Assembly (NCBI RefSeq): GCF_026340565.1
Contig: NZ_JAPEPB010000002.1
Span: 124,001-188,000, forward strand
Source of the DNA: Kitasatospora sp. NBC_01287
GTDB taxonomy: Bacteria; Actinomycetota; Actinomycetes; Streptomycetales; Streptomycetaceae
Length of the DNA: 64,000 nt
Reading direction: 5' to 3'
Under the pieces are notes generated by a model. That model had not been told where the DNA came from and ran no database searches. It saw only the letters and a list, made by a program, of their open reading frames with translations. Shown one piece after another: positions 45,249-64,000 of this stretch (position 1 is its first letter; every line of letters starts with the position of its first letter). The translations under genes and the position numbers were made by a program.

Positions 45249-46982
45249 ATGCTTGAAGACGACGTCCCCGACCCCACGGCCACCGCTGCGGAGATCGCAC
45301 GGTTGGCCGGGGTGACGCGCGCCGCAGTCTCCAACTGGCGCAGGCGTCGCCCGGACTTCCCGGCGCCTGTCGGCGGCACGGCGGCCAGCCCGTTGTTCTC
45401 GCTCGTTGAGGTGCAGCGGTGGCTGGACGGACAGCGCGAAGGGCGGGAGGTCAACAGCGAGGTCCGGTTGTGGCAGGCGCTTCGCACCGCCTTCGGGGTC
45501 GACATGGTTGGAGCGCTGGCGGCCGTTGGCGAGCATCTCCTTGGGGAGGGCATCGGGCTGAAGGACGGCTCTGCGCGCGAGGCGATGGAGGGACTGCTCG
45601 CGGAGCGGACTCCTGCCGAGGCGATGGACGGACTTGTCGCCCGTCTGTTGGATTCCACCGCCCGCGCCGCGTTGGACGGATCTTCGACGCTGCAACTCGC
45701 CCGAGCTGTGGGGGAGCTTGCGGGCGAGACCACCGGCACCGTCTTCGATCCGGCGTGCGGTATCGGATCCCTCCTGGTCGCGGTGGGTGGCGGCAAGGTG
45801 CGCAGCAGGCTGGGCCAGGACATGCAAGCGGATGCGGTTCGTCTGGCCCGGGTGCGTGTGGGCCTGTCCGCCGCCTCGAGGGCGACACCACCTCGGTTGG
45901 CGGAGGGCGACTCGCTTCGGGCTGACGCCTTTCCGGACCTTCGCGCGGACCTGGTCGTGTGCGAGCCGCCAACTGCCGTGGCCGACTGGGGTCGCGAGCA
46001 GTTGCTCGTCGATCCGCGCTGGGAGGCTGGGGTGCCCTCGCGTGGAGAGAGTGAGCTCGCTTGGCTCCAGCACTGCTACCACCACACAGCCCCTGGGGGG
46101 AGGGCCGTGGTCGTTTTGCCGGCGTCGGTCGCCCACCGCCGATCCGGTCGGCGGATTCGCGCGGAACTGGTGCGTCGCGGTTGCGTCACCGCGGTGGTGG
46201 CTCTGCCGCCGGGCCTCGCGGCTAGCCATGCTCTCCCGCTGCACGTGTGGATGCTGAGCCGGCCTTCCGCCCCCGGAAACGGCGCGACGACGGTGCGAAT
46301 GGTGGACCTCGGCGCCAGCAGCTCCGACGGACCGTGGCAGCCGAAGCCGCACCAGGAGGTCTGGGTGCCGCTGATCGATCTGCTCGACGATGACGTGGAC
46401 CTCACACCCGGCCGCTATGTCCGCGAGCCAGAACCCGACTACGCGGCAGAGTACGTCGCGCTGCGAGGCGAACTCGATCTACAACTGCGCAGACTGCGGA
46501 ACCTGCTACCGGAGCTGTCGGCCCGGAGCGATGCCGGCGACCTGGATGAGGGTGTACCAGTGGCGGTGAGCGACCTGTTGACCGCTGGTCTAGTCACTCT
46601 CGACGGCGAGCAACTCACCTCCACCAGTGACCAGCTGGACCCGGACTATGTGCGGGGCTTCGCAGCCAGTCCGGCGAACACCCGCCGCAGCACCTCGTCC
46701 TCGGGTACGTTCCGAGCGGACCTTCGCTCAGCGCGCTTGCCGCGTATGGACATTGAGGCGCAACAGCGCTACGGAAACGCCTTTCGCTTGTTGGGCACGT
46801 TCCAGCGCGAACTCACCGAACTTGCCAAGATAGGAGACCGAGCCGCGCGGCTCGCCTGCGACGGCCTCACCAGCGGCGCGCTCGACCCAGGGCCCGCGCT
46901 TGACTCGGGCGGCATCAGGCAGCAGATCACGACGACCGACGGAGACGACGCAGTGCGGCGGGAAGAGGGCAGGACGCTTTGA
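45249..46982 (+). CDS. HTH-fused N6-adenine DNA methylase-like protein with altered catalytic motif
   Basis: A 577-residue protein. Residues 14-65 form a phage/MerR-like HTH (ATAAEIARLAGVTRAAVSNW, ending with the FSLVEVQRWLDG wing). The SAM-binding motif I reads FDPACGIGSLL (near 167). Where HsdM proteins have NPPF/Y it reads CEPPTAVADW (near 238), so the catalytic Asn is replaced by Glu. The target half contains GGRAVVVLPASVAHRRSGRR, and the C-terminus has coiled-coil and SxTSSSGTFRADLRSAR segments. It overlaps the true hsdM by TTGA. It probably binds DNA and SAM without methylating, acting as a regulator or partner. The role is inferred. Confidence 0.8.
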   Translation: MLEDDVPDPTATAAEIARLAGVTRAAVSNWRRRRPDFPAPVGGTAASPLFSLVEVQRWLDGQREGREVNSEVRLWQALRTAFGVDMVGALAAVGEHLLGEGIGLKDGSAREAMEGLLAERTPAEAMDGLVARLLDSTARAALDGSSTLQLARAVGELAGETTGTVFDPACGIGSLLVAVGGGKVRSRLGQDMQADAVRLARVRVGLSAASRATPPRLAEGDSLRADAFPDLRADLVVCEPPTAVADWGREQLLVDPRWEAGVPSRGESELAWLQHCYHHTAPGGRAVVVLPASVAHRRSGRRIRAELVRRGCVTAVVALPPGLAASHALPLHVWMLSRPSAPGNGATTVRMVDLGASSSDGPWQPKPHQEVWVPLIDLLDDDVDLTPGRYVREPEPDYAAEYVALRGELDLQLRRLRNLLPELSARSDAGDLDEGVPVAVSDLLTAGLVTLDGEQLTSTSDQLDPDYVRGFAASPANTRRSTSSSGTFRADLRSARLPRMDIEAQQRYGNAFRLLGTFQRELTELAKIGDRAARLACDGLTSGALDPGPALDSGGIRQQITTTDGDDAVRREEGRTL

Positions 46983-49009
46983 GTAAGAACCAGGAACTGG
47001 CTGACTTCATCTGGTCGGTGGCCGACCTGCTGCGGGGAGATTACAAGCGCTCCGAGTACGGCAAGGTCATCCTGCCGCTGACTGTGCTGCGCCGGCTGGA
47101 CTGCGTCATGGAGCCGACCCGGCAGGCTGTGTGGGACCGGGCCGCCTCCTACACCGGAGAGAACAAGGACGGACTGCTGCTGGCTGCGTCCAAGCTCAAG
47201 TTCTACAACCTCTCCGAGCAGACCTTCGACACCATCAGCAGCGACGCGGCCAACGTGGCGAAGAACCTCAGGGACTACATCCGCGGCTTCTCAGTCGAGG
47301 CCACCGAGATCATCAACCGCTACGAGTTCCACCTCCAGATCGACCGGCTGGACAACGCTGACCTGCTCTACCAGGTGGTGCGGAAGTTCGCCGGCCTGGA
47401 CCTGAGCTTCGAAGCCGTGGACAACCACGACATGGGCTACGTCTTCGAGGAGCTGATCCGAAAGTTCGCCGACGCCTCCAACGAGACTGCCGGTGAGCAC
47501 TTCACCCCCCGCGAGGTCATCGAGCTGATGGTCGAACTGCTGCTCGCCCCAGACGACGACCGGCTGAACGGAGAGGGCCAGGTCGTCAACATCCTCGACC
47601 CGGCCTGCGGCACCGGAGGCATGCTCTCGGCGGCCGAGGAACACATCCGCAAGCTGAACCCGAGAGTGCGCGTCAACCTGTTCGGACAGGAGCTCAACGC
47701 CGAGTCGTACGCCATCTGCCGCTCCGACATGCTGCTAAAGGGCCACACCGCCAAGAACATCCGCTTCGGCAACTCCTTCAGCCAGGACGGCCACGAGGGC
47801 GAGACTTTCAACTACATGCTGGCCAACCCACCCTTCGGCGTGGAGTGGAAGAAGGTCGAGAAGGTCGTCCGTCAGGAGAACGAGGACCGGGGATACGACG
47901 GCCGCTTCGGCGCCGGCCTACCCCGGATCAACGACGGCTCGCTGCTGTTCCTGCAGCACATGATGAGCAAGATGCAGCCGCTGAAGAGGGACGCGGCCGG
48001 CGACGAGGTTGGCGGCACCCGGCTGGCCATCGTCTTCAACGGCTCCCCGCTCTTCACCGGTGGTGCGGGGTCCGGCGAGTCGGAGATCCGCAGGTGGATC
48101 ATCGAGCACGACTACCTGGAGGCGATCGTCGCCCTCCCGGACCAGATCTTCTACAACACCGGCATCTCCACGTACTTCTGGATCGTCACCAACCGCAAGC
48201 CTACCGACCGCAAGGGCCACGTGATCTTGCTTGATGCCCGCGACCAGTGGTCCAAGATGCGCAAGTCGCTCGGCGAGAAGCGTAAGGAGATTACCCGTGC
48301 CCAGATCGGACACATCTGCGGCATCTACCGCGACGCGCTTAGCATCGTCAGTGACGAGGCCCATCCGGACCACAGGCGAGTGAAGGTCTTCGCCAACCGG
48401 GACTTCGGCTACCAGCGCATCACTGTCGACCGGCCGCTCAAGCTCCGCTTTGAGCTGACCGAGAACAGCCTCACCCAGCTCGGCGCGTCAGCTGCCGTGA
48501 AGAAGTCAGTCGGCGGCGAGGCGGTGGTCGAGATGCTGCTCGCCGCGCTTAAGCCGCTGCTCGGATCGCAGTGGTCCACCAAAGCTGAGGCATGGGACGC
48601 GCTGCGCACGGCCATGGTGGAAGAGGGCGTGCTGTGGCCCGCCGTCGCAACGTTCCAGAAGGCCATGCGGGACGCACTGGGCGTGACAGACCCCGAGGGT
48701 GAAGTCCAACTCATCAAGGGTAAACCCGAGGCTGACGCCGACCTGCGCGACAACGAGAACGTCCCGCTGAGCGAGGACATCGACGAATATTTTGCCCGCG
48801 AGGTGTTGCCTCATGTCCCGGACGCCTGGATCGCGGAGACCCGTAACCCGAAGACGAAGGAGGTGGAGCGGTTCAAGACGGGGTACGAGATCCCGTTCAC
48901 CCGTCACTTCTACGTCTATACCCCGCCGAGGCCGCTGCCGGAGATCGACGCGGAACTCAAGTCGCTGGAGGCCGAGATTCAGGCGCTGCTCGGGGAGGTG
49001 ACCGGCTGA
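46979..49009 (+). CDS. hsdM: Type I restriction-modification methylase subunit HsdM (long form)
   Basis: A 676-residue N6-adenine methyltransferase. The N-terminal HsdM_N helical domain is KRSEYGKVILPLTVLRRLD. SAM motif I is DPACGTGGML near residue 206 and catalytic motif IV is ANPPFG near 282. A 150-residue C-terminal extension (GSQWSTKAEAWDALRTAMVE onwards, ending RHFYVYTPPRPLPEID) makes it about a quarter longer than classical HsdM. A TTG start overlaps the upstream stop. It should modify the site recognised by HsdS and protect host DNA. Confidence 0.95.
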   Translation: MSKNQELADFIWSVADLLRGDYKRSEYGKVILPLTVLRRLDCVMEPTRQAVWDRAASYTGENKDGLLLAASKLKFYNLSEQTFDTISSDAANVAKNLRDYIRGFSVEATEIINRYEFHLQIDRLDNADLLYQVVRKFAGLDLSFEAVDNHDMGYVFEELIRKFADASNETAGEHFTPREVIELMVELLLAPDDDRLNGEGQVVNILDPACGTGGMLSAAEEHIRKLNPRVRVNLFGQELNAESYAICRSDMLLKGHTAKNIRFGNSFSQDGHEGETFNYMLANPPFGVEWKKVEKVVRQENEDRGYDGRFGAGLPRINDGSLLFLQHMMSKMQPLKRDAAGDEVGGTRLAIVFNGSPLFTGGAGSGESEIRRWIIEHDYLEAIVALPDQIFYNTGISTYFWIVTNRKPTDRKGHVILLDARDQWSKMRKSLGEKRKEITRAQIGHICGIYRDALSIVSDEAHPDHRRVKVFANRDFGYQRITVDRPLKLRFELTENSLTQLGASAAVKKSVGGEAVVEMLLAALKPLLGSQWSTKAEAWDALRTAMVEEGVLWPAVATFQKAMRDALGVTDPEGEVQLIKGKPEADADLRDNENVPLSEDIDEYFAREVLPHVPDAWIAETRNPKTKEVERFKTGYEIPFTRHFYVYTPPRPLPEIDAELKSLEAEIQALLGEVTG

Positions 49010-50228: not shown

Positions 50229-53200
50229 ATGAACGATGCGCGCGTCTACACCGAGAAGGCATTTGAGAACGCCGTCGAGGCGGCGCTGCTGCGCAGCGGT
50301 TGGCAGCGCGGGCTCGCGAACACCTACGACCGTGCGCTGGGGATCGACACCTCGGAGCTTGCCGTGTTCCTCGGGGCGTCGCAGAACGACGCTTGGCTGG
50401 CGCTCCAGGCCGCCTATGGCGAGGAGGAGGAGCAGGCCATCGGCCGGTTCGCGAAGCGGGTGGCGCGGGAGATCGATTCGCGAGGGCTGCTGGATGTCCT
50501 GCGGCGGGGCGTGAACGACCGGAACGTAAAGATCCAGCTCGCGTACTTCCGTCCCGCGCACACTCTCGCTAGCGATGCCTTGGACGAGTACGACGCCAAC
50601 CAGCTCACGTTCGTGCGCCAGTTCCACTACTCGGCCTCGCGCCCGTCCGACACCCTCGACATGGCGTTCTTCCTCAACGGACTGCCGGTCGCCTCCGTGG
50701 AGTTGAAGAACGGGCTGACCGGCCAGACCGTCGAGGAGGCCAAGCGGCAGTACCGGCGGGACCGAGACCCGAAGGAGTTGTTCTTCGCGAAGCGCAGTCT
50801 GGTGCACTTCGCGGTCGATCCGACGCTGGCATTTCTGACGACCCGCCTGGCCGGGGACGCGACCCGCTTTCTGCCCTTCAACACCGGCTCCGGTGGCCCC
50901 GGTCAGATTGGCGGGGCGGGCAATGTCCCGGCACCTACAGACGGGTCGTATCCCACCTCTTACCTCTTCGACGGGGTATGGGCGCGGGACAACTGGCTGG
51001 AACTGCTGCAGCGCTTCCTGCACGTGGAGGACGCCGCAGCGAAGGCCGGCAGGGCGCCCTCGCACAAGCCCGGCAGTGCGCACACGCAACCGTTGATCTT
51101 CCCGCGGTTCCACCAGTGGGACGCAGTGCGCAAGCTCATCGCACACGCGGCCCGCCACGGCTCGGGGGAGAACTACCTGATCCAGCACTCCGCCGGTTCG
51201 GGCAAGTCCAACACCATCGCCTGGCTGGCGCACCACCTGTCGAGCTTGCACACCTCCCACGACCTTGGGCTGATCGCGCCGACCGCACTCGCCTCAGGCT
51301 TGGGGGCGAACAAGCTGGTCTTCGACAAGGTCATCGTGATCACTGACCGGCGGGTGCTGGACAAGCAGCTCCAGGACACCATCTACCAGTTCGACCACAA
51401 GGCCGGCGTGGTCGTACGGATCGACGAGAACTCCCAGCAGCTCGCGGACGCGCTGACCGGGCCGACGGCCCGGATCGTGATCACCACGGTGCAGAAGTTC
51501 CCCTTCGTCCTGGACAAGGTCGCGGGGCTGGGTGGACAGCGCTACGCGGTGATCATCGACGAGGCGCACTCCTCACAGGGCGGGGAGAGCGCAGCGGCGC
51601 TGAAGAAGGCGCTGGGCCGTCTTGGCTCCGACGCGGTGGATGAAGACGGTGACCCGCTGACGGCCGCGGCCCTGGCTCGCGGCAAGCAGCCGAACCTTTC
51701 CTTCTTCGCGTTCACTGCCACGCCCAAGGCCAAGACGATCGACCTGTTCGGCACCCCTTACCCCAACGCCGGCTCGGGGGAGCAGGAGAAGGGACCATTC
51801 CACGTCTACTCGATGCGGCAGGCCATCGAGGAGGGCTTCATCCTCGACGTGCTCGGCAACTACATCACCTACGCCACCTACTTCAAGCTGCAGGAGGCCG
51901 CCGCCGACGCGGCCGAGCAGCAGGTGGATCCGCGTAAGGCCCGCTCCAAGCTGGTGAGGGCTGCGCTGATGTCGGAAGCGTCGATGGCCTCCCGCGCGAA
52001 AATCATCGTTGACCACTTCCGCTTGCATTCGAGCCCGCGCCTCGGCGGTCGGGCCAAGGCGATGGTGGTCACCTCCGGCCGTGACCACGCCGTGCGGCTG
52101 TACCAGGCTATGCGCGCCTACATCGATCAGCGCGGCTTCACTGACTGCGGCACCCTTGTTGCGTTCTCCGGGGCACTGACCCTCGACGGGATCGAGTACA
52201 CCGAACCCAAGCTCAACGGCTTCCCCGAACGTGAACTGCCCGCCCGATTCGGCTACACCCGCGCTGACGACCCGAACCCGCCCTCCGTCCCCAAGCCCGA
52301 ACACCGGATCCTCGTCGTCGCCGAGAAGTACCAGACCGGCTTCGACCAGCCGCTGCTGACTACCATGTACGTGGACAAGATCCTGGTGAAGCTGGCCGCG
52401 GTGCAGACGCTGTCCCGACTCAACCGCACTCACCCCCTCAAGACCACCGAGGATCTGTTCATCCTCGACTTCGCCAACCGCCCCGAGGACATCCAACAGG
52501 CGTTCCAGCAGTACTACGAGGCGTCGATCAGCGAGCCCACCGACCCCAACCTGCTGTTCGACCGCGAACGCGAGGTCATGGCCTACCAGCTCCTGGTGCA
52601 AGCAGAGATGGACGCGTTCGTCACGGCGTACTTCGCCGCCTTCCAGGGCGGAACAGCGACCGACACGGCCATCATGAAGGCCCACGCCCGGCTCTACGGC
52701 TACCTCCAGCCGGCCCTGGACCGCTTCAACGCCCTCAACGCCACCGAGCCCGACACTGCGGCCGAGTTCCGCCGCGCCCTGGAGTCCTACACCAAGGCGT
52801 ACGGCTGGCTCTCCCACGTGATCGGCTTCGAGAACCTGGAGCTGGAACGGCTCTACCAGTACGGGCGCTTCCTGCTGCGTCGTCTGCCCGCACCCGTGCG
52901 CAGTGCCGGCGCGGACATCGGTGCCGCAGTCCCGAGCCACATGCGCATCACGCAGACCGGTACCCCCGAACTGCGCCTGGAGGCAGCCGGCGCACAGCTC
53001 CTGCCAGGCTTGGTGCCCGAAGCCGGCGGAGCAGTGGCCGAGGCGGAGGAGATGTCGCTGGCCGAGGTGATTCAGTCCGTCAACGCGGAATACGGAACCG
53101 GGTTGTCCACCACCGACCAGATCCTGCTCGGCCAGCTGGTGGTCGCCGTCAGCGAAGACCCCGAACTGCGGGCCATCGCGCTGCACCAGGATCAGGACGT

Positions 53201-53450
53201 CTTCGGCGGGGAGCTCGAGAAGGACCTCGACCGGATCGTCATCGACCAGGCGGCCTCCAACGACGCGCTCATGGTCCGATACTTCGACGACGCCAACGTC
53301 AACCGCCTGTTCAAGCAGGTCGCGACCCAGCAGGCTTACCAGCTCATCCGTCGCCCGGTCCGGCGCGAAGCCGAGCGCCGGGCCACTGAACAGCGGGCCG
53401 CCGAACTGAAGTCCACCGGAAGCCGTCGCGCGGAGCCACCAACCGCATAG
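50229..53450 (+). CDS. hsdR: Type I restriction endonuclease/translocase subunit HsdR
   Basis: A 1,073-residue motor-nuclease. The N-terminal PD-(D/E)xK nuclease has catalytic residues in LDMAFFLNGLPVASVELKNG (E-x-K near residue 157) and QYRRDRDP (QxxxY motif). Helicase motif I is SAGSGKSNT (near 324), motif II IIDEAH (near 441), motif III FFAFTATP, and motif VI QTLSRLNRTH. The C-terminal helical domain is long. It starts 11 bp after hsdS with GAGGGGG in front. It translocates DNA and cuts unmodified phage or plasmid DNA. Confidence 0.95.
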   Translation: MNDARVYTEKAFENAVEAALLRSGWQRGLANTYDRALGIDTSELAVFLGASQNDAWLALQAAYGEEEEQAIGRFAKRVAREIDSRGLLDVLRRGVNDRNVKIQLAYFRPAHTLASDALDEYDANQLTFVRQFHYSASRPSDTLDMAFFLNGLPVASVELKNGLTGQTVEEAKRQYRRDRDPKELFFAKRSLVHFAVDPTLAFLTTRLAGDATRFLPFNTGSGGPGQIGGAGNVPAPTDGSYPTSYLFDGVWARDNWLELLQRFLHVEDAAAKAGRAPSHKPGSAHTQPLIFPRFHQWDAVRKLIAHAARHGSGENYLIQHSAGSGKSNTIAWLAHHLSSLHTSHDLGLIAPTALASGLGANKLVFDKVIVITDRRVLDKQLQDTIYQFDHKAGVVVRIDENSQQLADALTGPTARIVITTVQKFPFVLDKVAGLGGQRYAVIIDEAHSSQGGESAAALKKALGRLGSDAVDEDGDPLTAAALARGKQPNLSFFAFTATPKAKTIDLFGTPYPNAGSGEQEKGPFHVYSMRQAIEEGFILDVLGNYITYATYFKLQEAAADAAEQQVDPRKARSKLVRAALMSEASMASRAKIIVDHFRLHSSPRLGGRAKAMVVTSGRDHAVRLYQAMRAYIDQRGFTDCGTLVAFSGALTLDGIEYTEPKLNGFPERELPARFGYTRADDPNPPSVPKPEHRILVVAEKYQTGFDQPLLTTMYVDKILVKLAAVQTLSRLNRTHPLKTTEDLFILDFANRPEDIQQAFQQYYEASISEPTDPNLLFDREREVMAYQLLVQAEMDAFVTAYFAAFQGGTATDTAIMKAHARLYGYLQPALDRFNALNATEPDTAAEFRRALESYTKAYGWLSHVIGFENLELERLYQYGRFLLRRLPAPVRSAGADIGAAVPSHMRITQTGTPELRLEAAGAQLLPGLVPEAGGAVAEAEEMSLAEVIQSVNAEYGTGLSTTDQILLGQLVVAVSEDPELRAIALHQDQDVFGGELEKDLDRIVIDQAASNDALMVRYFDDANVNRLFKQVATQQAYQLIRRPVRREAERRATEQRAAELKSTGSRRAEPPTA

Positions 53451-53525: not shown

Positions 53526-55166
53526 ATGGTGCACGGCACGCCGCCCTCCGAGCCAGGAGTACCGGCCCGCATCATCGCGGGCCGGTACCGGCTGCACTCC
53601 CCCATCGGTGCGGGCGGCATGGGTGAGGTCTGGCAGGCGTACGATGAACGCCTGGACCGCCGGGTGGCGGTGAAGATGATGCTGGCCGAAAGCCCGCTTC
53701 CGCCCGGATTCCAGGGCGCGGCCTTCGAAGAGACCCTGCAGACCCGCCGCGCCCGTTTCCTGCGCGAGGTCCAGATCACCGCCGGCATCGAACACCTTGG
53801 TGTTCCCGCTGTCTTCGACACAGGCACTGATGAGGCCAGCGGACGCCTGTTCGTGGTCATGCAGCTCCTCCAGGGCCGAGAACTGCAGACCTTCATCGAC
53901 GAAACCGACTACGAACACGAGACGGTCCCCGTCTCCTGGGCCGCGGCCGTCGGCGCCCAGATCGCCTCCGTCCTCGACACCGTGCACCACCACGACGTCG
54001 TCCACCGCGACATCAAGCCCTCCAACCTGATGATCACCCCTGGAGGGGTAGTCAAGGTCCTCGACTTCGGCGTCGCCGCCCTGCGCGGAGTCGGCACCCT
54101 GCCCCGGCTCACCCAGGTCGGCATGACCGTGGGAACCCCGCCCTACATGTCACCCGAGCAGAGCCTAGCGAACGCCGTAGGCCCCGCCGCCGACGTCTAC
54201 GCCCTCGCCTGCGTACTCCACGAACTCCTGACCGGGAAGCCACCCTTCACCCCCGACGACAGTCGCTCTCACATGTGGCACCACGTCCACACCCCAGCCC
54301 CGCCGATCCGCACCCTGCGCCCGGACGTGCCGGTCGACATCGAGGCTCTGCTCTTGGCGATGCTCACCAAGGAATCCGAGCAGCGCATGGGCGCGATGGA
54401 GGTCTATGACGCTCTCTTGCCCCTCGTTCATGTCAACGCCCAAACCCTCGCTGCGACCGGCGATGGTGTCCTCGACCCTCGACTGCCGTTCCTCCGCCCC
54501 TTTGGTGGTCGGCCGCGCACTGCCGGCGTCGTTGCCTCCTACACGCCCACCGTGGTTGTTCCCTCGCCACTCGCGGTTCCTGCCGCAGCGGTGCAGGAAG
54601 GCGCCGTCGCATTGGCCGAGCAAGAGGCAGACGCGATTTCGGACCGTGCGGCTCGGCTGGCTCAGGAAGGCCAGTTCACCCAGGCCGTCGACGTTCTGGA
54701 TAGCGCCATCGCAAGGGCCACGGATCCAGAGCTCAGGGAAGGCATGCAGTTCAGCCTCGCCCAAGTGAAGTTCCTGGCCGGAAGCCACCGCGAGGCCCTC
54801 GCCCTGTTCGAGCCCCTCGCCCACGAATACACGAACCGCTATGACGGTGACGACGAGCAAGCACAGCTGTGTTGGTACTACACCGCGCAGTGCCGGATGG
54901 AACTTGGTGAAGCGAGCGCCGCCATTCGGGCCTTCGACCATGTCGCGGAGAACACGCCTGCTTCCGACGACGAGGACGCCGTCAACCGCCACCTGGATAC
55001 CCTCGCCCGGCTCATGAGTCTGTATGCAGCGACGGAAAACCTCCCCCAGGCACTGGACATCGGCGACCGACTCCGAACGGAGACCTCCCACCTGCGGGGA
55101 AGCGATTGGCCAGGGCTAGCGCAGATCGACGCCTATCTCCACCGCCTTCGCCGAGACCTGGGCTAA
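53526..55166 (+). CDS. Serine/threonine protein kinase with C-terminal TPR repeats
   Basis: A 546-residue soluble kinase. The glycine loop is IGAGGMGEVWQAYD, ATP Lys is K49 in VAVKMM, the catalytic loop is HRDIKPSNLM (D162), DFG is LDFGVAAL and the APE-like motif is PPYMSPEQS. All key residues are present. After a Pro-rich linker, residues about 365-545 carry three or more TPR-like helical hairpins (AARLAQEGQFTQAVDVLDSA, FLAGSHREALALFEPLAHE, and ELGEASAAIRAFDHVAE). There is no membrane helix or PASTA domain. It lies 76 bp after hsdR on the same strand and may be part of the defence operon. Confidence 0.9.
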   Translation: MVHGTPPSEPGVPARIIAGRYRLHSPIGAGGMGEVWQAYDERLDRRVAVKMMLAESPLPPGFQGAAFEETLQTRRARFLREVQITAGIEHLGVPAVFDTGTDEASGRLFVVMQLLQGRELQTFIDETDYEHETVPVSWAAAVGAQIASVLDTVHHHDVVHRDIKPSNLMITPGGVVKVLDFGVAALRGVGTLPRLTQVGMTVGTPPYMSPEQSLANAVGPAADVYALACVLHELLTGKPPFTPDDSRSHMWHHVHTPAPPIRTLRPDVPVDIEALLLAMLTKESEQRMGAMEVYDALLPLVHVNAQTLAATGDGVLDPRLPFLRPFGGRPRTAGVVASYTPTVVVPSPLAVPAAAVQEGAVALAEQEADAISDRAARLAQEGQFTQAVDVLDSAIARATDPELREGMQFSLAQVKFLAGSHREALALFEPLAHEYTNRYDGDDEQAQLCWYYTAQCRMELGEASAAIRAFDHVAENTPASDDEDAVNRHLDTLARLMSLYAATENLPQALDIGDRLRTETSHLRGSDWPGLAQIDAYLHRLRRDLG

Positions 55167-56752: not shown

Positions 56753-57409
56753 GTGCCGTCGGTGATTGCGTTGCTGGAGCGTCGTGAGGCGCGGGCCCGG
56801 GAAGAGTTGGATGCCTGGCAGGAGCTGCTGCGCGAGGCCCAGGAGCAGGTGGCTGTCCATCAGGAGCGGTTGGAGTGTGCGCGGATCGGCCGGGAGGAGG
56901 TGCTGCGTGCGCTGGCGGAGGAGGCCGAGGCCGTGATGGTGCAGCCGCTGACTGCGGTGACGCCCACCGCTCGCGCGCTGGCGCCGGTGACGGCACCGCA
57001 AGTGCCGCCGCAGCCGCCGCACGAGGCGGGGGACGGCGTGCCGGAGCCGGCAGTGCCCGCGGTGCCTTCGGTCCTGCGGACGGGTTACGATCCGCGGCCG
57101 CCTGCGTGGCAGCCGGGCCTGGGCGTGGAGGTGCTGGCCGGGGCCTATCGGCAGGTCTTCGATGTGGTCGCGGGTGCGGGTGCCCCGGTGGCGGTCAAGG
57201 CGTTGACTGTCGCGCTGGGGCGGGACGCAGAGCGGCTGAAGGAGATCGAGAAGGTCCGTCACCGGGCCTATGCGCTGCAGGCCAGGGGCTGGCTGGGGCG
57301 GGTGCCGGGCGGGTTGTTCATCCCCGCGCCGGGCCCGGCGCGGGGAGCCGGTGCGGGCGGAACTCGGGCCAGTGCAGGCGCTGGCGGGCCATCCGCCGGC
57401 CGAGGGTGA
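56753..57409 (+). CDS. Passenger protein of the IS5-like element, coiled coil plus winged-helix-like domain
   Basis: A 218-residue protein. The N-terminal 60 residues are a coiled coil (ALLERREARAREELDAWQEL). A Pro/Ala linker follows, then residues 130-200 resemble a compact winged helix (VKALTVALGRDAERLKEIEKV, with ALQARGWLGRVPGGLFIP). GGAGG lies about 8 nt before the GTG at 56753. From memory, similar coiled-coil-wing proteins are numerous in streptomycete mobile DNA. The last 30 residues are Gly/Ala-rich and overlap the transposase end. Function unknown. Confidence 0.6.
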   Translation: MPSVIALLERREARAREELDAWQELLREAQEQVAVHQERLECARIGREEVLRALAEEAEAVMVQPLTAVTPTARALAPVTAPQVPPQPPHEAGDGVPEPAVPAVPSVLRTGYDPRPPAWQPGLGVEVLAGAYRQVFDVVAGAGAPVAVKALTVALGRDAERLKEIEKVRHRAYALQARGWLGRVPGGLFIPAPGPARGAGAGGTRASAGAGGPSAGRG

Positions 57410-58283
57410 TCGAGGCGGCCCACCACACCATCTGCACGTGGTGGTCGTCGCGGCGCTCGTGGTCGCGGTTCAGGCGCCGCGAGCGCGAGAGCCAGCCGAG
57501 CGTGCGCTCCACCACCCACCTGCGCGCCAGTACCCTGAACCCCTTGGTTCCGTCGGTGCGCTTGACCACCTCCACTCTCACCCCGTGCGCGGCGAAGGCG
57601 TCGGCCAGTTCCTGGCCCTGGTAGGCGGAGTCCGTCCACACGAGTTCGAGCAGCCGTCCGGGCTCGGCCATGAATGCCTCGAGCAACTCCGGGGCGGCCT
57701 TGGAGTCGTGCACGTTGGCCGCGGTGACGGTGACCTCCAGCAGCAGTCCGCCGGTGTCGGTCAGGACGTGGCGCTTGCGCCCGTCGCGCAGCTTGCCGCC
57801 GTCGAAGCCGCGTGAGGTGGCCGGACAGGTCTCCGAGCCGTCCACGGACTGAGAGTCGATGATGCCCGCGCTCGGCTCCGTCGCCTTGCCCTGCTTCTTG
57901 CGCTCGGTGCGGCGCAAGCGCTGGTAGAGCTCGCGGATGTAGCCGTGGCGGCGCCAGCGGCGGAAGAAGTCGTACACCGCCCGCCAGAAGGGGTAGTCCG
58001 CAGGCAGATTGCGCCACTTGACGCCATTGTCGACCAGATAGCGCACCGCGTCGATCACCCCCCGGTGGCAGTGCGCCTCAGGGCGTCCGCCCTTCCCCTC
58101 CAGCCAGGCGGGCATCGGCATCGCGCCGCGGATCACCGCCCATTCGGCGTCCGTCATGTCGCTGTCGTAGCGCGGCGCGCGGTGCCCCTCCCCGATCGCC
58201 CCGTACAGGTGCACGTAGCAGTCACACCCCGGAGTGAGCGCAGTGGACTCGCCGGCACCGGGAGTGCTGAACTGGTTGGGCAA
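57318..58283 (-). CDS. IS5-family transposase
   Basis: A 321-residue DDE transposase. N-terminal DUF4096-type domain: MTDAEWAVIRGAMPMPAWLE and AVRYLVDNGVKWRNLPADYP. DDE core: first D in IIDSQSVDGSE, second D in VWTDSAYQGQ, and E in RRWVVERTLGWLSRSRRLNRD. The TTG start at 58283 keeps the GHRAPRYDSDMTDAEW leader commonly seen in this family; ATG at 58157 is an alternative. The reading frame appears intact. Confidence 0.9.
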   Translation of the reverse strand: MPNQFSTPGAGESTALTPGCDCYVHLYGAIGEGHRAPRYDSDMTDAEWAVIRGAMPMPAWLEGKGGRPEAHCHRGVIDAVRYLVDNGVKWRNLPADYPFWRAVYDFFRRWRRHGYIRELYQRLRRTERKKQGKATEPSAGIIDSQSVDGSETCPATSRGFDGGKLRDGRKRHVLTDTGGLLLEVTVTAANVHDSKAAPELLEAFMAEPGRLLELVWTDSAYQGQELADAFAAHGVRVEVVKRTDGTKGFRVLARRWVVERTLGWLSRSRRLNRDHERRDDHHVQMVWWAASITLGRRMARQRLHWPEFRPHRLPAPGPARG

Positions 58284-58682: not shown

Positions 58683-59162
58683 TCAGGCTCCGACCAGGGC
58701 GCGGGGGTCGGCGTCGGCGTCCCAACCGTGCGTGGAGAAGCCGCGCCCTCCGTGCAGGTAGGCGACGAGCGCCTTGTGCGAGGTGGGGAACATCGGGGTG
58801 GGCAGAGCATCGACCGGTGCCCACGCGACGGACACGTGCTTGTCCGGCTCGGTGTTCGTCAGCTCGCCCTGCCAGGTCGTCGTGGCGAAGACGGACAGCA
58901 GGAACGGGCCCCGGCCGTCCCACCCTGCCTTGACCTGGATCGTGTGCACCAGGCTCAGCTTCTGCGGATCAACAATCAGACCGGTCTCCTCCAGGACCTC
59001 GCGTGCCGCCGCCTCATCCAGCCGTTCACCCTCCTCCGCCTTTCCTCCCGGGATCGTGAACGCTGGCGTCTTGGCCCAACTGTCGTTCGCGTAGTGGATG
59101 ACGGCGACCCGTCCGGTGGCCTGGTCGTGAACGATGGTGCTGACGGCCTGACGAAGAGTCAT
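58683..59162 (-). CDS. Nudix hydrolase (MutT-like)
   Basis: A 159-residue protein. The Nudix box has G-x5-E-x7-REVLEETGL (beginning GGKAEEGERLDEAAA). The flanking strands are TIVHDQATGRVAVIHYAND and LLSVFATTTWQGE. The start is the ATG at 59160-59162. The substrate could be an oxidised nucleotide or other nucleoside diphosphate derivative, which cannot be told here. A small gene follows, almost touching it. Confidence 0.88.
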   Translation of the reverse strand: MTLRQAVSTIVHDQATGRVAVIHYANDSWAKTPAFTIPGGKAEEGERLDEAAAREVLEETGLIVDPQKLSLVHTIQVKAGWDGRGPFLLSVFATTTWQGELTNTEPDKHVSVAWAPVDALPTPMFPTSHKALVAYLHGGRGFSTHGWDADADPRALVGA

Positions 59163-59403
59163 CACGATGGTGTTCCCAACTTCCTTGGTGGAGATCAGAA
59201 CTGGACGGACTGCTCGTACAACAGGGCAAACGGTAGGGGCGGTTGCGGATCCCTTCGTGTCGGCTTTCGAGATGACGATCCTGGCAGTCGAGGGCCTGGG
59301 CGGTAGCAAGTCGGCTCGGGAGTCACCCGATCGTGGCAACATCAGTTCGAGGCCGGCCTGCGGCCGAGCGGCGGGCCGAGGCCGTCGGTGCGGCGCCAGT
59401 CGG

Positions 59404-60012
59404 TCAGATGAGCCGGAGAGCACAGGTGATGAAGTCGCGTGCGGCGGGCGCTCCCTGAGCGCTGTCACGCAGCAGGTCGAAAGCGCGCTGGAAGAGGGTG
59501 ACGCCGTCCGGGCCGGTGATCGTGTGCGGGCCGGCGTAGCCCTCGGTCTCGACCCGGCTCCCGTCGTAGATCGTGAATCCGCCGCCCGGGTAGACGCGCA
59601 GTCGGGCGCGAGCGGGGATGACGGTGACGGTCAGACCAGGGCGGTCGAGCACCTCGAGCAGGTGCCGCAGCTGGGCACGCATCACCGCGGGCTCGATGGC
59701 GGTCAGCAGCGCCTGCTCCCCCAGCAGGACGTCGTGAGTGCGGTATGCCTCACCCAGGTACCGGGCGCGGGCGAGGCGGGCGTCGAGGCCGGCCTCGATG
59801 TCATCGGGCAGCTGGTGCAAGTCGGCGACGCTGCGCAGGACCGCGCGGGCGTACTCGGGGATCTGGCAGGCGCCCCAGATAAGGTCGGGACAGTAGACGG
59901 CCTGGTGCCTGGCTCCGCTGGTCAGGTCTAGGTACGCCTGCTGGGTGGGGCCGGTACCGCGTTGCAGCAGATGATCCTTGCTGGCCGGGGCGAGGGGCGG
60001 TTCAGGGCACAC
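59404..60012 (-). CDS. DUF5753 protein without the usual N-terminal HTH
   Basis: A 202-residue protein that corresponds to the DUF5753 sensor domain: LIWGACQIPEYARAVLRS, LGEAYRTHDVLLGEQALLTA, PGLTVTVIPARAR and VTLFQRAFDLLRDSA. In the Scr1-type DNA-binding proteins of streptomycetes this domain follows an HTH of about 70 residues. Here the frame opens directly on it from a GTG, and the 170 bp upstream encode no HTH in any frame seen. It may be a truncated regulator, or one that needs a partner. Confidence 0.75.
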   Translation of the reverse strand: MCPEPPLAPASKDHLLQRGTGPTQQAYLDLTSGARHQAVYCPDLIWGACQIPEYARAVLRSVADLHQLPDDIEAGLDARLARARYLGEAYRTHDVLLGEQALLTAIEPAVMRAQLRHLLEVLDRPGLTVTVIPARARLRVYPGGGFTIYDGSRVETEGYAGPHTITGPDGVTLFQRAFDLLRDSAQGAPAARDFITCALRLI

Positions 60013-60185: not shown

Positions 60186-61630
60186 CTACAGGTCGCGAGG
60201 GACGGGGGCATCGGGCGCGGCGAGGGCGAACAGCAGCCGGGGGCCGAGCCCCACAGTGTGGCCGCTGCCCATAAGCAGGACGGTGTCGCGGGGGCCAGCG
60301 AGTTTGGCGAGCAGGTGCTCGACGCCGGCTGCGGGGAGGTCTTCGCCGGGCAGGTCGGGGGTGTGGAGGTGGTTGTCCAGGCCGCCGATGGTGGCAGCGC
60401 GCGCGATGGCGCCGGTTCCGGTGGGCAGGTCGGGGTTGTCGGCCCGGCGCCGGTCGTACAGCGGCAGCAGCACCAGTTCGTCGACGGCGGCGAGCTCGGC
60501 GCCGATGTCCTTGGCCTGGGCGAGCGTGCGCGACCAATGGGAGGGTTCGAAGACGGCGACGAGCCGGCCCGTCGTCAGGGAGCGGGCGGCCTTGAGGTCG
60601 TCAGCGATCTCGACCGGGTGCCGGGCGAGGGAGTCCATCACGGTGACGCCCTCTTGGCGCCCCAGGACGGTCAGGGACCGCTCGATGCCGCGGTACTGCT
60701 CCAGGCCACGCCCCAGGTCGCCGGGGTCGGCGTCGAGGGCGAGGGCGGCAGCCATCGCCAACGCTGCGGCCGTGGCCGCGTGGCGCCCGGGCAGCGGCAG
60801 GCGCAGCGCGTGTGTCCTGCCCTCCCAGTCGCTCAGCGTCAGGGTGCTACCAGCGCCGTCCGTGGTGAGCTTGGTGATCCGCAGATCGCTGCCGCGGACC
60901 TGACCGACGCTCACCACCCGCGGGCCCGGCTGGTGCTCGGCCAGGCGCTGGGCGAGTTGGGCGCAGCCGCTGTCCCAGGTCGGCAGCACCACGATCTGGC
61001 TGCGGCGGGCCAGTGCCTCCAGTTCCTCCAGCGCGGCGTCGTGGTTGTCGAAGTGGGGTGGGTTCGCCGTGACGGCGGTGATCACGGTCAGCGTGGGTGC
61101 GCAGCATCCGCCGAGGTCGGCGTCGGGGCCGAGCTCGGTGATCAGCAGGTCGCCGCCGCTGTGGTGCCCGGCAGGCTGTCCGACAGGCGGGGCGAGCAGC
61201 GTCCAGGCCGGATTGCGTAGTGCAGGGCGGCGGTGAGTGCCCCGGCGGTGAGCGTGGTGCTGTGGCTGCCGGCCACCACGATCGAGGTCGGGGCGGCGGC
61301 GATCAGCAGGCCCAGCGCGTCCGCGTGGTCCAGGACCGGCAGGCCCATGTCCTGGGCGCGCGTCGTTTCGGCGCCGCGGGCCAGCGAGTTCGCCCCCGAG
61401 GCGACGAGGGCGGACATGTCGGCGCGCACGTGGCCGCGATCGTGTCCGGGCAGGACACCGATCCCGAGAGCGGCCAGATGGTCGGGGACGTCCTGGGGGT
61501 GGGCGCAGCCGGTGGGGCGGGCGCCGCGCTCGGCCAGCACTTGAGCCAGGCCCGGCATACCCGGATCTGCGATCCCGATCAGGTGCGGGGCTGCCAGCAG
61601 TGCGGGACCGGTGTAGTCGAGGGGGTCCAT
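60186..61630 (-). pseudogene. MurC/Mpl-like Mur ligase, frameshifted and with a lost P-loop Lys
   Basis: Two reading frames together cover one Mur-ligase-like protein of about 481 residues. The N-terminal part (61142-61630) ends at GALTAALHYA. The C-terminal part (60186 upward) continues in the -1 frame with NPAWTLLAPP and GGDLLITELGPDADLGG. One base is missing near 61215. The ATP loop that is GTHGKTT in MurC reads GSHSTTL, so the Lys is absent, while MDSLARHPVEIADDL recalls the MurC DDYxHHPxE motif. Sequencing error cannot be excluded. It is the last gene of the operon, 2 bp after the CvnD-like gene. Confidence 0.75.
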
Positions 61631-61632
61631 GG

Positions 61633-62247
61633 TCAGCTCCTTTGCTGCGGGAACGCGATGGCTTCTGCGCTGGCAGCGGTTGCGTGGGCGTGTTGGACGA
61701 GGGCGGTCAGGGAGCTCATCGCGGTGCCGTGCTGCGTTATGTCGGCCGTGATGAGGGGGATGCGCGGGTCGTTCAGGTGCAGGGCCCGGCGGACGGTTGC
61801 CTTGGTGCCGGGCCACGCGGGGCCGGGCTCGTTGATGACCGCGGCCAGTGGGATGCGGCGCCGGTGGAGGTATTCGGTCGTGGCCAGGGAGGAGGCCGGA
61901 TTGTGGGGGTCGGCGACGACGAGTGCGGCGTCGGCGGCGCACAGCAGCTCTTCCCAGCGGAACCACAGCCGCTCCTCGTCAGGGACGGCGAAGAGCGTCA
62001 CAGCTGCCCGCTCCAGGGCGATGCGGCCCAGGCTGAGCGTCACCGTGGCATCGGGGTCCTCGCTCAGGCCGCTGCCGGGGGCGGTGACGCTCAGCAGCTC
62101 CGTGACCGGTCGCAGCGGGTTATCGCTCAGGGCGGTGGCCAAGGTGTGCGCGGTGCCGGGCGGGCCGGCCACGAGGACCGCCAGGGACGGGCGCGGGTCG
62201 AGCAGCAGGCACTCGCCGCTGGGTGGGGACGGGTGGAGGGATGGCAC
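61633..62247 (-). CDS. CvnD-like GTPase relative without P-loop Lys
   Basis: A 204-residue protein resembling the small GTP-binding protein of streptomycete conservons. VLVAGPPGTAHTLATALSDN stands at the P-loop, TVTLSLGRIALERAAVTLFA resembles the MDFGRI switch region, VPDEERLWFRWEELLCAADA corresponds to GTPGQxRFWFMWDDL, and PLAAVINEPGP to the N(K/x)xD area. The P-loop G-K-T is replaced by A-H-T and the NKxD is absent, so GTP binding is doubtful. It lies in a coupled operon with a GS-like ligase and a MurC-like protein, without the other conservon genes. Confidence 0.72.
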   Translation of the reverse strand: MPSLHPSPPSGECLLLDPRPSLAVLVAGPPGTAHTLATALSDNPLRPVTELLSVTAPGSGLSEDPDATVTLSLGRIALERAAVTLFAVPDEERLWFRWEELLCAADAALVVADPHNPASSLATTEYLHRRRIPLAAVINEPGPAWPGTKATVRRALHLNDPRIPLITADITQHGTAMSSLTALVQHAHATAASAEAIAFPQQRS

Positions 62248-62298
62248 CGGGTGTCTTCCTGAGTCGTCGGTCGGAAAGGGGGTGACAGCGCCAGGTCG

Positions 62299-63705
62299 TC
62301 ATGCCTGGTCGAAGCCGCGCTGAACTTCCAGGTCGCTGACGTGCTGCTCGTGGAAGCGAAGCTCGGCGTCGGCGGCCAGCGCGTAGTGGGCGATGACCTT
62401 CTCGCCGAACAGCTCGACGGCCAGGGCGCTGTGTTCGAACGCGTCAACGGCTTCACCGAGCGACAGCGGCACGCACGGGGCGGCGGTCTGCCGGTAGGCG
62501 TCACCGGACACCGGCGCCGGCGGCGCCAGGTGCTCCTCGATCCCCCAGCGGGCGGCTGCCGCGGCCGCGGCCACCAGCAGGTAGGGGTTGGCGTCCGCGC
62601 CGGGCAGCCGCACCTCCAGGTGAAGGCCCGGGCCGTGCCCGACCACCCGCACCGCACACGTGCGGTTGTCGCGGCCCCAGGCGAACCTCGTCGGCGCGAA
62701 CGAGTACGGCCGGTAGCGCTTGTAGGAGTTGACGTACGGCGCGAGGAGAGGCATCAGATCCGGGAACGCGCCGAGCAGGCCGGCCACCACGTGCTGACCG
62801 AGCGGCGACAGCTCCTCGGGGCGGTCCGGGTGGGCGAGCACCGGCCGGTCCTCCCGCCACAGCGACAGGTGCAGATGGAGCCCGGCACCTGTCGAGTCGT
62901 CGGGCGCAGCCATGAACGTCGCGGCCATGTGCTGCCGGGCGGCGAGCGCGCGAGCGGCCTCCTTGAACAGCACGTGCTGCTCGCACGCCGCCGTCGCATC
63001 CCCGTACGGGAAGGTGACCTCCAGCTGGCCAGGGGCGCCTTCGGCCTTGACGGCCTCCACCGGCAGCCCGGCGCCTTCCAGCGCGGAGGTCAGACGCGCG
63101 AGGTACTGGGCCACCTTCTCCGGCAGGTCGAAGGCGTAGTCCCGCCCCGGGCCGGTCACTGGCAGCAGGGTGCGCACCCTCGCACCCTGCTGCGCCGCCT
63201 GGTCCTCGTCCGAGGCGTGGTAGACGACGAACTCGCTCTCCAATCCGACCCTGATCTCCAGGCCCTGGCCGGCCAGCGCCGCGAGCTGCTCGCGCAGCAC
63301 CGTGCCCGGCGCGACCGGCAGGCGCTGCCCGGTGGCATCCAGTGGATCGGCGAGCACCAGCGCGGTGTGCGGCACCCATGGCACTACCCGCGCCGTGCGG
63401 GCGTCAGGGGCCAGACGCACATCCGGGTAGCCGTCGCGCCACCAGCTCTCGGCCGCCACCATGCCCAGGTCAGTGGCCAGCAGGTACCCGCAGCCTTCCA
63501 TGTGCATCGTGTCGTCCAGCAGCCGCTCCACGACGCCCGCCGTCGGGAAGGTCTTGCCGCGCAGCCGGCCCTGCAGGTCGATGGTCGCGATCCGTACCTG
63601 CCGGACCTCGTCGATCCGCACCGCCTCACGGAACTGGGTCGGCGTCAGCAGGCCGCGAAACTGGGCACCCGTGCCCAGCGTGGGCATCGGTGCGGTGGTC
63701 ATCAT
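62299..63705 (-). CDS. Glutamine synthetase-like gamma-glutamyl ligase (GlnA/PuuA type)
   Basis: A 468-residue enzyme of GS class I shape. VGLESEFVVY and GAPGQLEVTFPYGDA carry metal-binding Glu residues, GAGLHLHLSLWRE has the nucleotide/metal His, RYRPYSFAPTRFAWGRDNRT holds the ATP/glutamate Arg, and LEVRLPGADANPYLL is the last signature. Catalytic residues appear intact. Family members ligate Glu to ammonia, polyamines, anilines or other amines. The ATG overlaps the stop of the upstream APC permease gene (ATGA), so uptake and gamma-glutamylation of one amine substrate are probably linked. Confidence 0.9.
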   Translation of the reverse strand: MMTTAPMPTLGTGAQFRGLLTPTQFREAVRIDEVRQVRIATIDLQGRLRGKTFPTAGVVERLLDDTMHMEGCGYLLATDLGMVAAESWWRDGYPDVRLAPDARTARVVPWVPHTALVLADPLDATGQRLPVAPGTVLREQLAALAGQGLEIRVGLESEFVVYHASDEDQAAQQGARVRTLLPVTGPGRDYAFDLPEKVAQYLARLTSALEGAGLPVEAVKAEGAPGQLEVTFPYGDATAACEQHVLFKEAARALAARQHMAATFMAAPDDSTGAGLHLHLSLWREDRPVLAHPDRPEELSPLGQHVVAGLLGAFPDLMPLLAPYVNSYKRYRPYSFAPTRFAWGRDNRTCAVRVVGHGPGLHLEVRLPGADANPYLLVAAAAAAARWGIEEHLAPPAPVSGDAYRQTAAPCVPLSLGEAVDAFEHSALAVELFGEKVIAHYALAADAELRFHEQHVSDLEVQRGFDQA

Positions 63706-64000
63706 ACGACCTCGGCTTCAAGCTCGGCCATCGCCCGGTCGGCGACCGGGATGCTGTAGCGCGGGCCAGCCACCCGGTAGCTGACCTCCGCGCCGACCAG
63801 AACCACCACCAAGGCGATGCCGGCGTAGTTGAAGGAGTCGACGGTCACCGGGGATACCTGCGGCAGGCAGAACAGCAGCGTCACGCAGGCGACCCACACC
63901 ACGGCCACGACACCGATCGGCTTGCTCCAGCGGCCCAGGCTCCACGGACCGGGCCGAAAGCGCCGCCCCGCACGCAGACGCAGGAACACCGGGATCGCGA
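63702..64000 (-). CDS. C-terminal end of an APC-type amino acid/amine permease (partial)
   Basis: The gene runs off the right end of the window. The visible 99 residues have two membrane helices (PIGVVAVVWVACVTLLFC, then DSFNYAGIALVVVLVGAEVSY) that match the last two helices of APC-superfamily permeases, followed by an acidic tail (MAELEAEVV). Its TGA overlaps the ATG of the glutamine-synthetase-like gene, so it is the first visible gene of that operon. Confidence 0.8.
   Translation of the reverse strand, partial: AIPVFLRLRAGRRFRPGPWSLGRWSKPIGVVAVVWVACVTLLFCLPQVSPVTVDSFNYAGIALVVVLVGAEVSYRVAGPRYSIPVADRAMAELEAEVV

What the first reader, a model, noticed from the sequence alone, without database searches (positions are those of the whole stretch)
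60186..64000. Operon of permease, gamma-glutamyl ligase and two P-loop-less NTPase relatives
Seen: an APC permease end, an intact GS-like ligase, a CvnD-like protein with GPPGTAHT instead of G-x4-GK-T, and a MurC-like protein with GSHSTT instead of GTHGKT, all close-spaced. Both NTPase-fold proteins have lost the ATP/GTP-contacting Lys. Inference: they may have become binding or scaffold proteins in a pathway that adds Glu to an amine, possibly a specialised metabolite. The coincidence of two dead P-loops is striking.
Basis: partly seen in the sequence, partly recalled or inferred. Interest (0 to 1): 0.6.

Follow-up and report, generated by a model that had tools for sequence, protein, structure and literature searches.

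The report
Retired cell-wall enzyme in regulator-like operon
A group of soil bacteria keeps, under selection, a cell-wall enzyme relative that has lost key ATP-handling parts and sits next to, or fused to, DNA-binding and switch-like proteins, so it probably works as a binding or regulatory part rather than as an enzyme.

Summary
In detail: APC permease end, GS-like ligase, CvnD-like protein with GPPGTAHT, MurC-like protein with GSHSTT. Missed: the Mur-like gene is split by a one-base net loss near 61,217.

The P-loop losses are conserved, not local decay. I found 29 such Mur-like loci in 23 of 70 genomes of the genus (probably Kitasatospora) and one in 324 other genomes of the family. Of these 30 copies 29 have the P-loop segment, none with Lys; 9 of 9 paralogues and 7 of 7 housekeeping MurC keep it. 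The adenine Asn, second-metal His and triphosphate His are gone in 26 of 26 open copies; the window lineage keeps the metal-binding Thr and Glu. The group has one origin (100/100), the MurC fold (model Z 38) and purifying selection. The other-genus locus repeats the window's genes, GPPGTAHT included, with the Mur frame open.

A LuxR-type HTH gene directly follows in 24 of 29 loci and is fused in one; a dead CvnD-like domain or a Roadblock gene precedes in some. Best reading: a Mur pseudoenzyme serving as adaptor or ligand sensor of a regulatory module, often coupled to a gamma-glutamyl ligase. Partners, binding and ligand are inferred.

The parts
63702..64000 (-). C-terminal end of an APC-type amino acid permease (whole gene 502 aa, runs past the window end; L009:5703-7211)
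   Evidence: NCBIfam TIGR00907 E 4.2e-111 for the whole protein, below that model's cut-off
62299..63705 (-). GS-like gamma-glutamyl ligase, 468 aa; the motifs examined are kept; Phe where the ammonia-using GS in the alignment has Glu
61633..62247 (-). CvnD-like (Ras-like) protein, 204 aa, without a P-loop Lys
   Evidence: 27-36% identity to CvnD proteins over about 170 aa; no Pfam family above cut-off
62143..62166 (-). GPPGTAHT in place of the CvnD P-loop GGFGVGKT
   Evidence: identical in L144
61142..61630 (-). MurC-like gene, N-terminal part (first frame)
61253..61270 (-). GSHSTT in place of the MurC P-loop GTHGKT
61216..61218 (-). site of a one-base net loss that splits the MurC-like frame
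   Evidence: DNA alignment with L144
60186..61216 (-). MurC-like gene, middle and C-terminal part (second frame; the listed ORF with a start codon is 60186-61085)
58683..59165 (-). NUDIX hydrolase; a relative also lies downstream of the Mur-like gene in L144, L042 and L041/L069 (directly or after one or two genes)

Best explanation
The window holds one copy of an operon found in about a third of the genus, whose centre is a MurC-derived, probably non-catalytic protein. Shown by sequence: it keeps the Mur domains and the predicted MurC fold but has lost the P-loop Lys, the second-metal His, the adenine Asn, the triphosphate His and most UDP-loop glycines; the metal-binding Thr and Glu are replaced in most copies but kept in the window lineage; it is under purifying selection; it is encoded with, and in one locus fused to, a LuxR-type helix-turn-helix protein; in some loci a dead CvnD-like domain precedes it or shares its reading frame, in others a Roadblock protein precedes it. 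Inferred: it does not ligate amino acids with ATP; it works as a non-catalytic adaptor or ligand-binding part of a regulatory complex that passes a metabolite signal to the HTH protein. Where the APC permease and GS-like ligase are present, the likely signal is an imported amine or its gamma-glutamyl product. In the window lineage (window and L144) the HTH gene is absent from this place, so there the CvnD-like protein is the candidate partner; the window's own Mur copy is broken by a frameshift unless the assembly is wrong.
For: Lys lost in 29 of 29 copies with the segment, kept in 9 of 9 paralogues and 7 of 7 housekeeping MurC. Second-metal His, adenine Asn and triphosphate His lost in 26 of 26 open copies, first-metal Glu in 25 of 26, all kept in the 16 comparison proteins (residue roles from PMC3060825, passages). 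One origin, 100/100. dN/dS 0.24-0.54 in 10 pairs; window against L144: Mur 0.25 and 0.31, CvnD-like 0.39, GS 0.26. Model pLDDT 82, Z 38.3 to MurC 1p3d over 441 residues at 2.5 A. HTH directly downstream in 24 of 29 loci, fused in 1, one inserted gene away in 1; GerE E 4.4e-7 to 3.2e-17 in 3 of 4 tested. All 22 genus matches to the L046 HTH protein at E <= 1e-10 lie within 2 kb of a dead-Mur gene (places). CvnD-like and Mur in one reading frame in L042 and L069/L041. Roadblock gene (E 2e-6, one tested) overlapping the Mur start by 4 bases in 4 loci, and a short piece in a fifth.
Against: No binding, expression or interaction data. The window and L144 keep the metal-binding Thr and first-metal Glu, the triphosphate Arg is kept in 19 of 26 and the ribose Asp in 13 of 26, so nucleotide binding is not excluded, least of all in the window lineage. 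The HTH partner is not in place in the window, L144, L066 and L070. Distances of Mur follow GS (0.93) better than HTH (0.87 on 17 loci; 0.83 on all pairs held), so the ligase may be the closer partner (pairs are not independent). The tree program flags the join of L144 with L042 and L069 as one of long branches. The loci with CvnD-like and Mur in one frame keep a ribosome-binding-like stretch before the Mur start, so a separate Mur protein may also be made.
Confidence: 0.43

Rival explanations
1. One reading: the Mur-like (and CvnD-like) protein is a non-catalytic scaffold or substrate-binding subunit of the GS-like gamma-glutamyl ligase in a pathway that adds Glu to an imported amine.
For: GS-like ExE, ExxxGQxE and HxH motifs in 22 of 22 operon sequences and Phe where ammonia-using GS has Glu in 22 of 22; Mur and GS distances correlate at 0.93, partial correlation 0.75 against 0.45 for HTH; 22 of 29 loci have both APC and GS (in L041 their frames are broken as called).
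Against: 7 of 29 loci lack the APC/GS pair yet keep the dead Mur, 5 of them with HTH next to it and 1 more with an HTH cut by the contig end. High correlation may only mean that neighbouring genes travel together.
Confidence: 0.25
2. The Mur-like protein is still an enzyme, with a re-built active site or a different donor, for instance a ligase that uses a pre-activated substrate or an ATP user without the P-loop Lys.
For: A family motif (GSHST in 22 of 28 genus copies with the segment, hand count) is itself conserved; metal-binding Thr and Glu are kept in the window and L144, and Arg or Asp at other parts of the site in many.
Against: Second-metal His, adenine Asn and triphosphate His are lost in 26 of 26 and the first-metal Glu in 25 of 26; L043, L050, L051, L058, L066 and L070 vary even the new motif.
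Confidence: 0.14
3. The genes are decaying remnants without function.
For: The window Mur copy is frameshifted; L044 lacks the P-loop segment and L048 is frameshifted.
Against: 27 of 30 copies have an open Mur frame; purifying selection; the same GPPGTAHT and GSHSTT in an ortholog from another genus.
Confidence: 0.08

Closest known systems
MurC, UDP-N-acetylmuramate--L-alanine ligase
   Same: Mur domains, profile match to a MurC structure (7bva, E 1.3e-49), model Z 38.3 to 1p3d
   Different: P-loop Lys, second-metal His, adenine Asn, triphosphate His and most UDP-loop glycines lost; different operon; the genome has another MurC match elsewhere (C1:2913568), taken as the housekeeping one
Conservon / actinobacterial G-protein system (CvnA-D)
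   Same: CvnD-like protein (window) or Roadblock protein (other loci) encoded next to the Mur-like gene
   Different: No CvnA kinase or CvnC recognised among the neighbours inspected; the CvnD-like protein lacks the P-loop Lys; Mur-like and mostly HTH proteins are present instead
PAP11 / plant MurE-like protein of plastid-encoded RNA polymerase
   Same: A Mur ligase relative taken over as a part of transcription machinery (PMC12681378, passages); chain 8r6s_Q of a plastid RNA polymerase entry is row 50 of the fold list (that this chain is PAP11 is my inference)
   Different: MurE type, in plants; part of the polymerase itself rather than linked to an HTH protein
GS-like gamma-glutamylpolyamine/amine synthetases (GlnA3, PuuA)
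   Same: The GS-like gene of the operon; the same contig carries a Puu-type operon with APC, GS-like, Peptidase_C26 and dehydrogenases
   Different: No hydrolase or dehydrogenases beside the window's GS-like gene, so a plain catabolic route is not visible. GlnA3 paper known from the search listing only (PMC5403932); PuuA recalled

Membership tests
MurC / ATP-dependent Mur ligases | Mur domains and fold | tested here: met
   PF01225 and PF02875; model of a relative Z 38.3, 2.5 A, 441 residues
MurC / ATP-dependent Mur ligases | P-loop Lys (GTHGKT) | tested here: not met
   0 of 29 copies with the segment; 16 of 16 comparison Mur proteins have it
MurC / ATP-dependent Mur ligases | second-metal His, adenine Asn, triphosphate His | tested here: not met
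   each lost in 26 of 26 open copies and in the window C part; kept in 16 of 16 comparison proteins (roles from PMC3060825, passages)
MurC / ATP-dependent Mur ligases | metal-binding Thr of the P-loop and first-metal Glu | tested here: inconclusive
   window and L144 keep both; among 26 open copies Thr is kept in 8 and Glu in 1
MurC / ATP-dependent Mur ligases | ligase activity | not testable with these tools
   no assay
CvnD Ras-like GTPases | sequence relationship | tested here: met
   34-36% identity, E about 1e-19 per genome for the best matches; 27-34% to 12 aligned relatives
CvnD Ras-like GTPases | G1/P-loop GxxxxGK(T/S) | tested here: not met
   GPPGTAHT (window, L144), GAEHDTAA (L042), GTEHDTTA (L069); 12 of 12 CvnD relatives keep GKT
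CvnD Ras-like GTPases | Ras-like fold of this protein | tested here: inconclusive
   single-sequence model too poor, pLDDT 39
Conservon (CvnA, B, C, D) | all four core genes together | tested here: inconclusive
   CvnD-like or Roadblock at most seen; no kinase or CvnC recognised among neighbours read, but not every neighbour was run against a family library
GS-like gamma-glutamyl ligases | GS catalytic domain and core motifs | tested here: met
   PF00120 E 2.9e-83; ExE, ExxxGQxE, HxH in 22 of 22; the ExR...NP pattern in 21 of 22, not matched in L069
GS-like gamma-glutamyl ligases | a defined amine substrate | not testable with these tools
   no NCBIfam equivalog reached its cut-off
Mur relative in transcription (PAP11-like role) | physical link to a transcription protein | tested here: inconclusive
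   gene fusion with HTH in 1 of 29 loci and adjacency in 24 of 29; no protein data

The most novel reading that the evidence does not exclude
A MurC ligase was turned, once, in the Kitasatospora lineage into the ligand-sensing hub of a new kind of one-operon signalling system: permease and GS-like ligase import an amine and tag it with Glu, the dead Mur protein reads the gamma-glutamyl product with its old amino-acid side, and a LuxR-type HTH protein (with a dead Ras-like or a Roadblock partner in some lineages) turns that into transcription.
Probability: 0.2. Interest if true: 0.8.

Novelty: new variant of a known kind. Interest (0 to 1): 0.55.

Why it matters
Mur ligases are among the best-studied bacterial enzymes, yet a conserved bacterial family of Mur pseudoenzymes tied to HTH and switch-type proteins was not found in the papers searched (search listings; the library lacks most subscription papers). 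If the regulatory reading is right, it gives a bacterial parallel to the plant MurE-like protein of plastid RNA polymerase and a tractable soil-bacterial model of how an enzyme becomes a sensor. If only the scaffold reading is right, it still shows a GS-like ligase that evolves together with a dead Mur partner.

Tried and rejected
Single-sequence AlphaFold model of the window CvnD-like protein: pLDDT 39, discarded. First scan of genome contigs with the C part alone: no relative; repeated with an alignment, 11 named loci. Defence-system library, 10 proteins: only two marginal matches (E 0.0088 and 0.0042), rejected. Programmed frameshifting for the split Mur gene: rejected by inspection only (no slippery run that I could see at the site; L144 reads through in one frame); not tested formally. 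The idea that the window had lost an HTH gene: not supported, since L144 also shows none between Mur and NUDIX. The idea that Mur is tied more closely to HTH than to GS: the distance comparison did not support it. An earlier reading that the window's metal-binding residues are lost: wrong for Thr and first-metal Glu, which the window and L144 keep; I lowered the best explanation from 0.45 to 0.43 and raised the enzyme rival from 0.12 to 0.14 for that reason. L043, L050, L063-L066, L072, L147 and L148 were missed by a first motif pattern and read again.

A family absent from a fold list is not excluded; no claim here rests on such an absence.
Full report
WHAT IS THERE. The window is G000:C2:124001-188000, on an 865-kb contig beside an 8.5-Mb one. 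On the minus strand lie the end of an APC permease, a GS-like ligase, a CvnD-like protein and a MurC-like protein. The genes overlap or nearly touch: -4 bases (permease/GS), 51 (GS/CvnD-like), 2 (CvnD-like/Mur-like). Upstream, outside the window, lies a gene of 319 aa that recurs in related operons (labelled TPR3; no Pfam match).

THE MUR GENE IS SPLIT. In fact its N part (61142-61630) and its middle and C part (from 60186) are in different frames. An ortholog in another genus, L144, is 82% identical in DNA and reads through in one frame; the alignment needs one three-base gap and one single-base gap, the latter near window position 61,217. Intact copies therefore exist. Two other copies in the genus are broken: L044 lacks the P-loop stretch and L048 is frameshifted further on.

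THE P-LOOP LOSS IS A FAMILY TRAIT. A search of 70 genomes of the genus and a profile search of 394 genomes of the family, 70 of them the same genus, give 29 loci of this Mur-like group in 23 of 70 genomes (two of the loci, L041 and L069, are near-copies in one genome) and one (G113, L144) in the other 324. Outside the genus I counted only matches above the score range of ordinary MurC (up to about 287 bits); a copy as diverged as L070 (270 bits) would be missed. A class-wide draw of 394 genomes at a stricter limit found only the window's own. Of the 30 copies 29 have the P-loop segment; the Lys position is Thr in 28 and Asn in 1; L044 lacks the segment. It is Lys in 9 of 9 paralogues (six intact-P-loop Kitasatospora loci, three Streptomyces plasmid genes) and in 7 of 7 housekeeping MurC. 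At positions given for MurC/Mpl in PMC3060825 (passages), among the 26 open copies in the tree: second-metal His, adenine Asn and triphosphate His are lost in 26 of 26; first-metal Glu is Asp in 24, Thr in 1, Glu in 1 (L144); the P-loop Thr is kept in 8 of 26; triphosphate Arg in 19, ribose Asp in 13; the third and fourth positions of the UDP loop are Gly in 1 and 2 of 26. The 16 comparison proteins keep these, except Ser for Thr in 3. The window itself keeps the P-loop Thr, the first-metal Glu, the Arg and the ribose Asp, and lacks the rest. So the loss is broad in the family, but the window lineage is the least stripped at the first metal site.

IT IS KEPT, NOT DECAYING. The dead group is one side of a branch with 100/100 support in a 42-row tree and needs one change of state. 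dN/dS (Nei-Gojobori) is 0.24 to 0.54 in 10 close pairs of Mur-like genes, like the GS-like genes beside them (0.31 to 0.53 in 8 pairs). Window against L144: permease 0.16, Mur C part 0.25, GS 0.26, Mur N part 0.31, CvnD-like 0.39. High G+C makes dS rough. A model of the K. mediocidica protein (10-row alignment) has pLDDT 82 and pTM 0.84 and aligns with MurC 1p3d over 441 residues at 2.5 A, Z 38.3.

THE CVND-LIKE PROTEIN. It aligns with 12 CvnD relatives at 27-34% identity (E 8.5e-25 to 2.2e-14 in a small file); all 12 keep a GKTT P-loop. The best genus matches are 34-36% identical, E about 1e-19. The window and L144 share GPPGTAHT at 70% overall identity. L042 and L069 (with L041) carry a CvnD-like domain with other broken P-loops, in the same reading frame as the Mur-like domain and without a stop between; a ribosome-binding-like stretch precedes the Mur start, so both a fused and a separate Mur protein may be made. 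L144, L042 and L069 group at 98/96, but the program flags this join as one of long branches, so a single gain of the CvnD-like partner is likely rather than shown (the window was not in the tree because its gene is split).

NEIGHBOURS. In 29 genus loci: HTH gene directly downstream in 24, fused to the Mur-like protein in 1 (L056), one inserted gene away in 1 (L048), not in that place in 3 (L009, L066, L070; in L070 an HTH-like gene, itself one of my queries, lies two genes upstream). L144 has none there either. GerE matches: L046 4.4e-7 (one stretch), L042 4.6e-15 and L057 3.2e-17 (two stretches each); the L070 protein has none. None of the six intact-P-loop Kitasatospora loci shows this HTH beside the Mur gene. 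In 70 genomes all 22 matches to the L046 HTH protein at E <= 1e-10 lie within 2 kb of a dead-Mur gene; of 15 weaker ones down to 1e-6, 5 do and 10 do not. A Roadblock gene (PF03259, E 2e-6 for L057) overlaps the Mur start by 4 bases in L054, L055, L057 and L061; in L062 only a 36-aa piece was called there. These five Mur copies group at 100/100. APC and GS-like genes precede the Mur-like gene in 22 of 29 loci, a GH15 trehalase-like gene follows in 19 and a nucleoside deoxyribosyltransferase-like gene (below Pfam's cut-off) in 17. Gene calls are from my own hexamer script, so small genes may be missed.

WHICH PARTNER. On 17 loci that have Mur, HTH, GS and APC, pairwise distances of Mur correlate with GS at 0.93, with HTH at 0.87, with APC at 0.39; partial correlations are 0.75 (GS) and 0.45 (HTH). 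This speaks for GS, Mur and HTH travelling together, GS most closely, and against my first thought that HTH alone is the partner. It cannot separate function from neighbourhood, and pairs are not independent. But the five Roadblock loci and L070 keep the dead Mur without GS.

THE GS-LIKE LIGASE. It keeps the ExE, ExxxGQxE and HxH motifs in 22 of 22 operon sequences. Where two ammonia-using-type GS in the alignments have Glu (NSYKRLVPGYEAP), the window has Phe, as does 5dm3, the nearest solved relative, and so do 22 of 22; that this Glu is catalytic is recalled. An amine other than ammonia is therefore likely (inference). The same contig carries a Puu-type operon with a second APC/GS-like pair, a Peptidase_C26 and dehydrogenases.

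MECHANISM. Shown: anatomy, conservation, loss of residues, fold by prediction, gene fusions. Inferred: no ligation with ATP; a regulatory complex with the HTH protein (CvnD-like or Roadblock in some lineages); a ligand that may be an amine or its gamma-glutamyl product. Feedback-inhibited GS acting on transcription factors in Bacillus is a recalled precedent; the plant MurE-like PAP11 in plastid RNA polymerase is a precedent for a Mur relative in transcription (PMC12681378, passages).

KNOWN WORK. Conservons are described as CvnA kinase, CvnB Roadblock, CvnC and CvnD GTPase (PMC13343842, abstract; PMC4316618, passages). Searches for a Mur pseudoenzyme or a MurC-like regulator in these bacteria gave no paper on this family (listings); most subscription papers are not in that library.

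Noticed in passing
L010:491-8544 (G000:C2 about 795.5-803.5 kb): A Puu-type amine-use operon on the same contig: APC, GS-like (40% identical to the L046 operon's GS), Peptidase_C26, two aldehyde dehydrogenases, a short-chain and a zinc dehydrogenase.
   Followed up: partly
L059, L060, L071-L074; L146-L148: A different MurC paralogue with an intact P-loop sits, in varying combinations, beside a second Mur ligase (annotated MurF on the plasmids), D-Ala-D-Ala ligase, a PLP enzyme (threonine/serine dehydratase) and a C39-like peptidase: perhaps a spare or altered cell-wall precursor pathway.
   Followed up: partly
window 59404-60012 (-): A DUF5753 protein of 202 aa without its usual HTH part, between the Mur-like gene and the NUDIX gene; not seen in L144.
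   Followed up: partly
window 57318-58283 (-): IS4/5-type transposase downstream of the NUDIX gene, where L144 and L042 have an ABC transporter gene.
   Followed up: partly
window 46979-49009 and 50229-53450 (+): Type I restriction-modification genes (HsdM, HsdR-like), followed by a protein kinase gene at 53526-55166.
   Followed up: no
L045:2318-6346: A 1342-aa protein with AMP-binding, carrier and hexapeptide domains lies where the GS-like and APC genes should be; only a short GS C-terminal remnant remains.
   Followed up: no
L054, L055, L057, L061, L062: Sub-clade of the dead Mur family with a Roadblock gene upstream and no APC/GS pair; in L055 one 698-aa frame matches both the HTH and the deoxyribosyltransferase-like queries.
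   Followed up: partly
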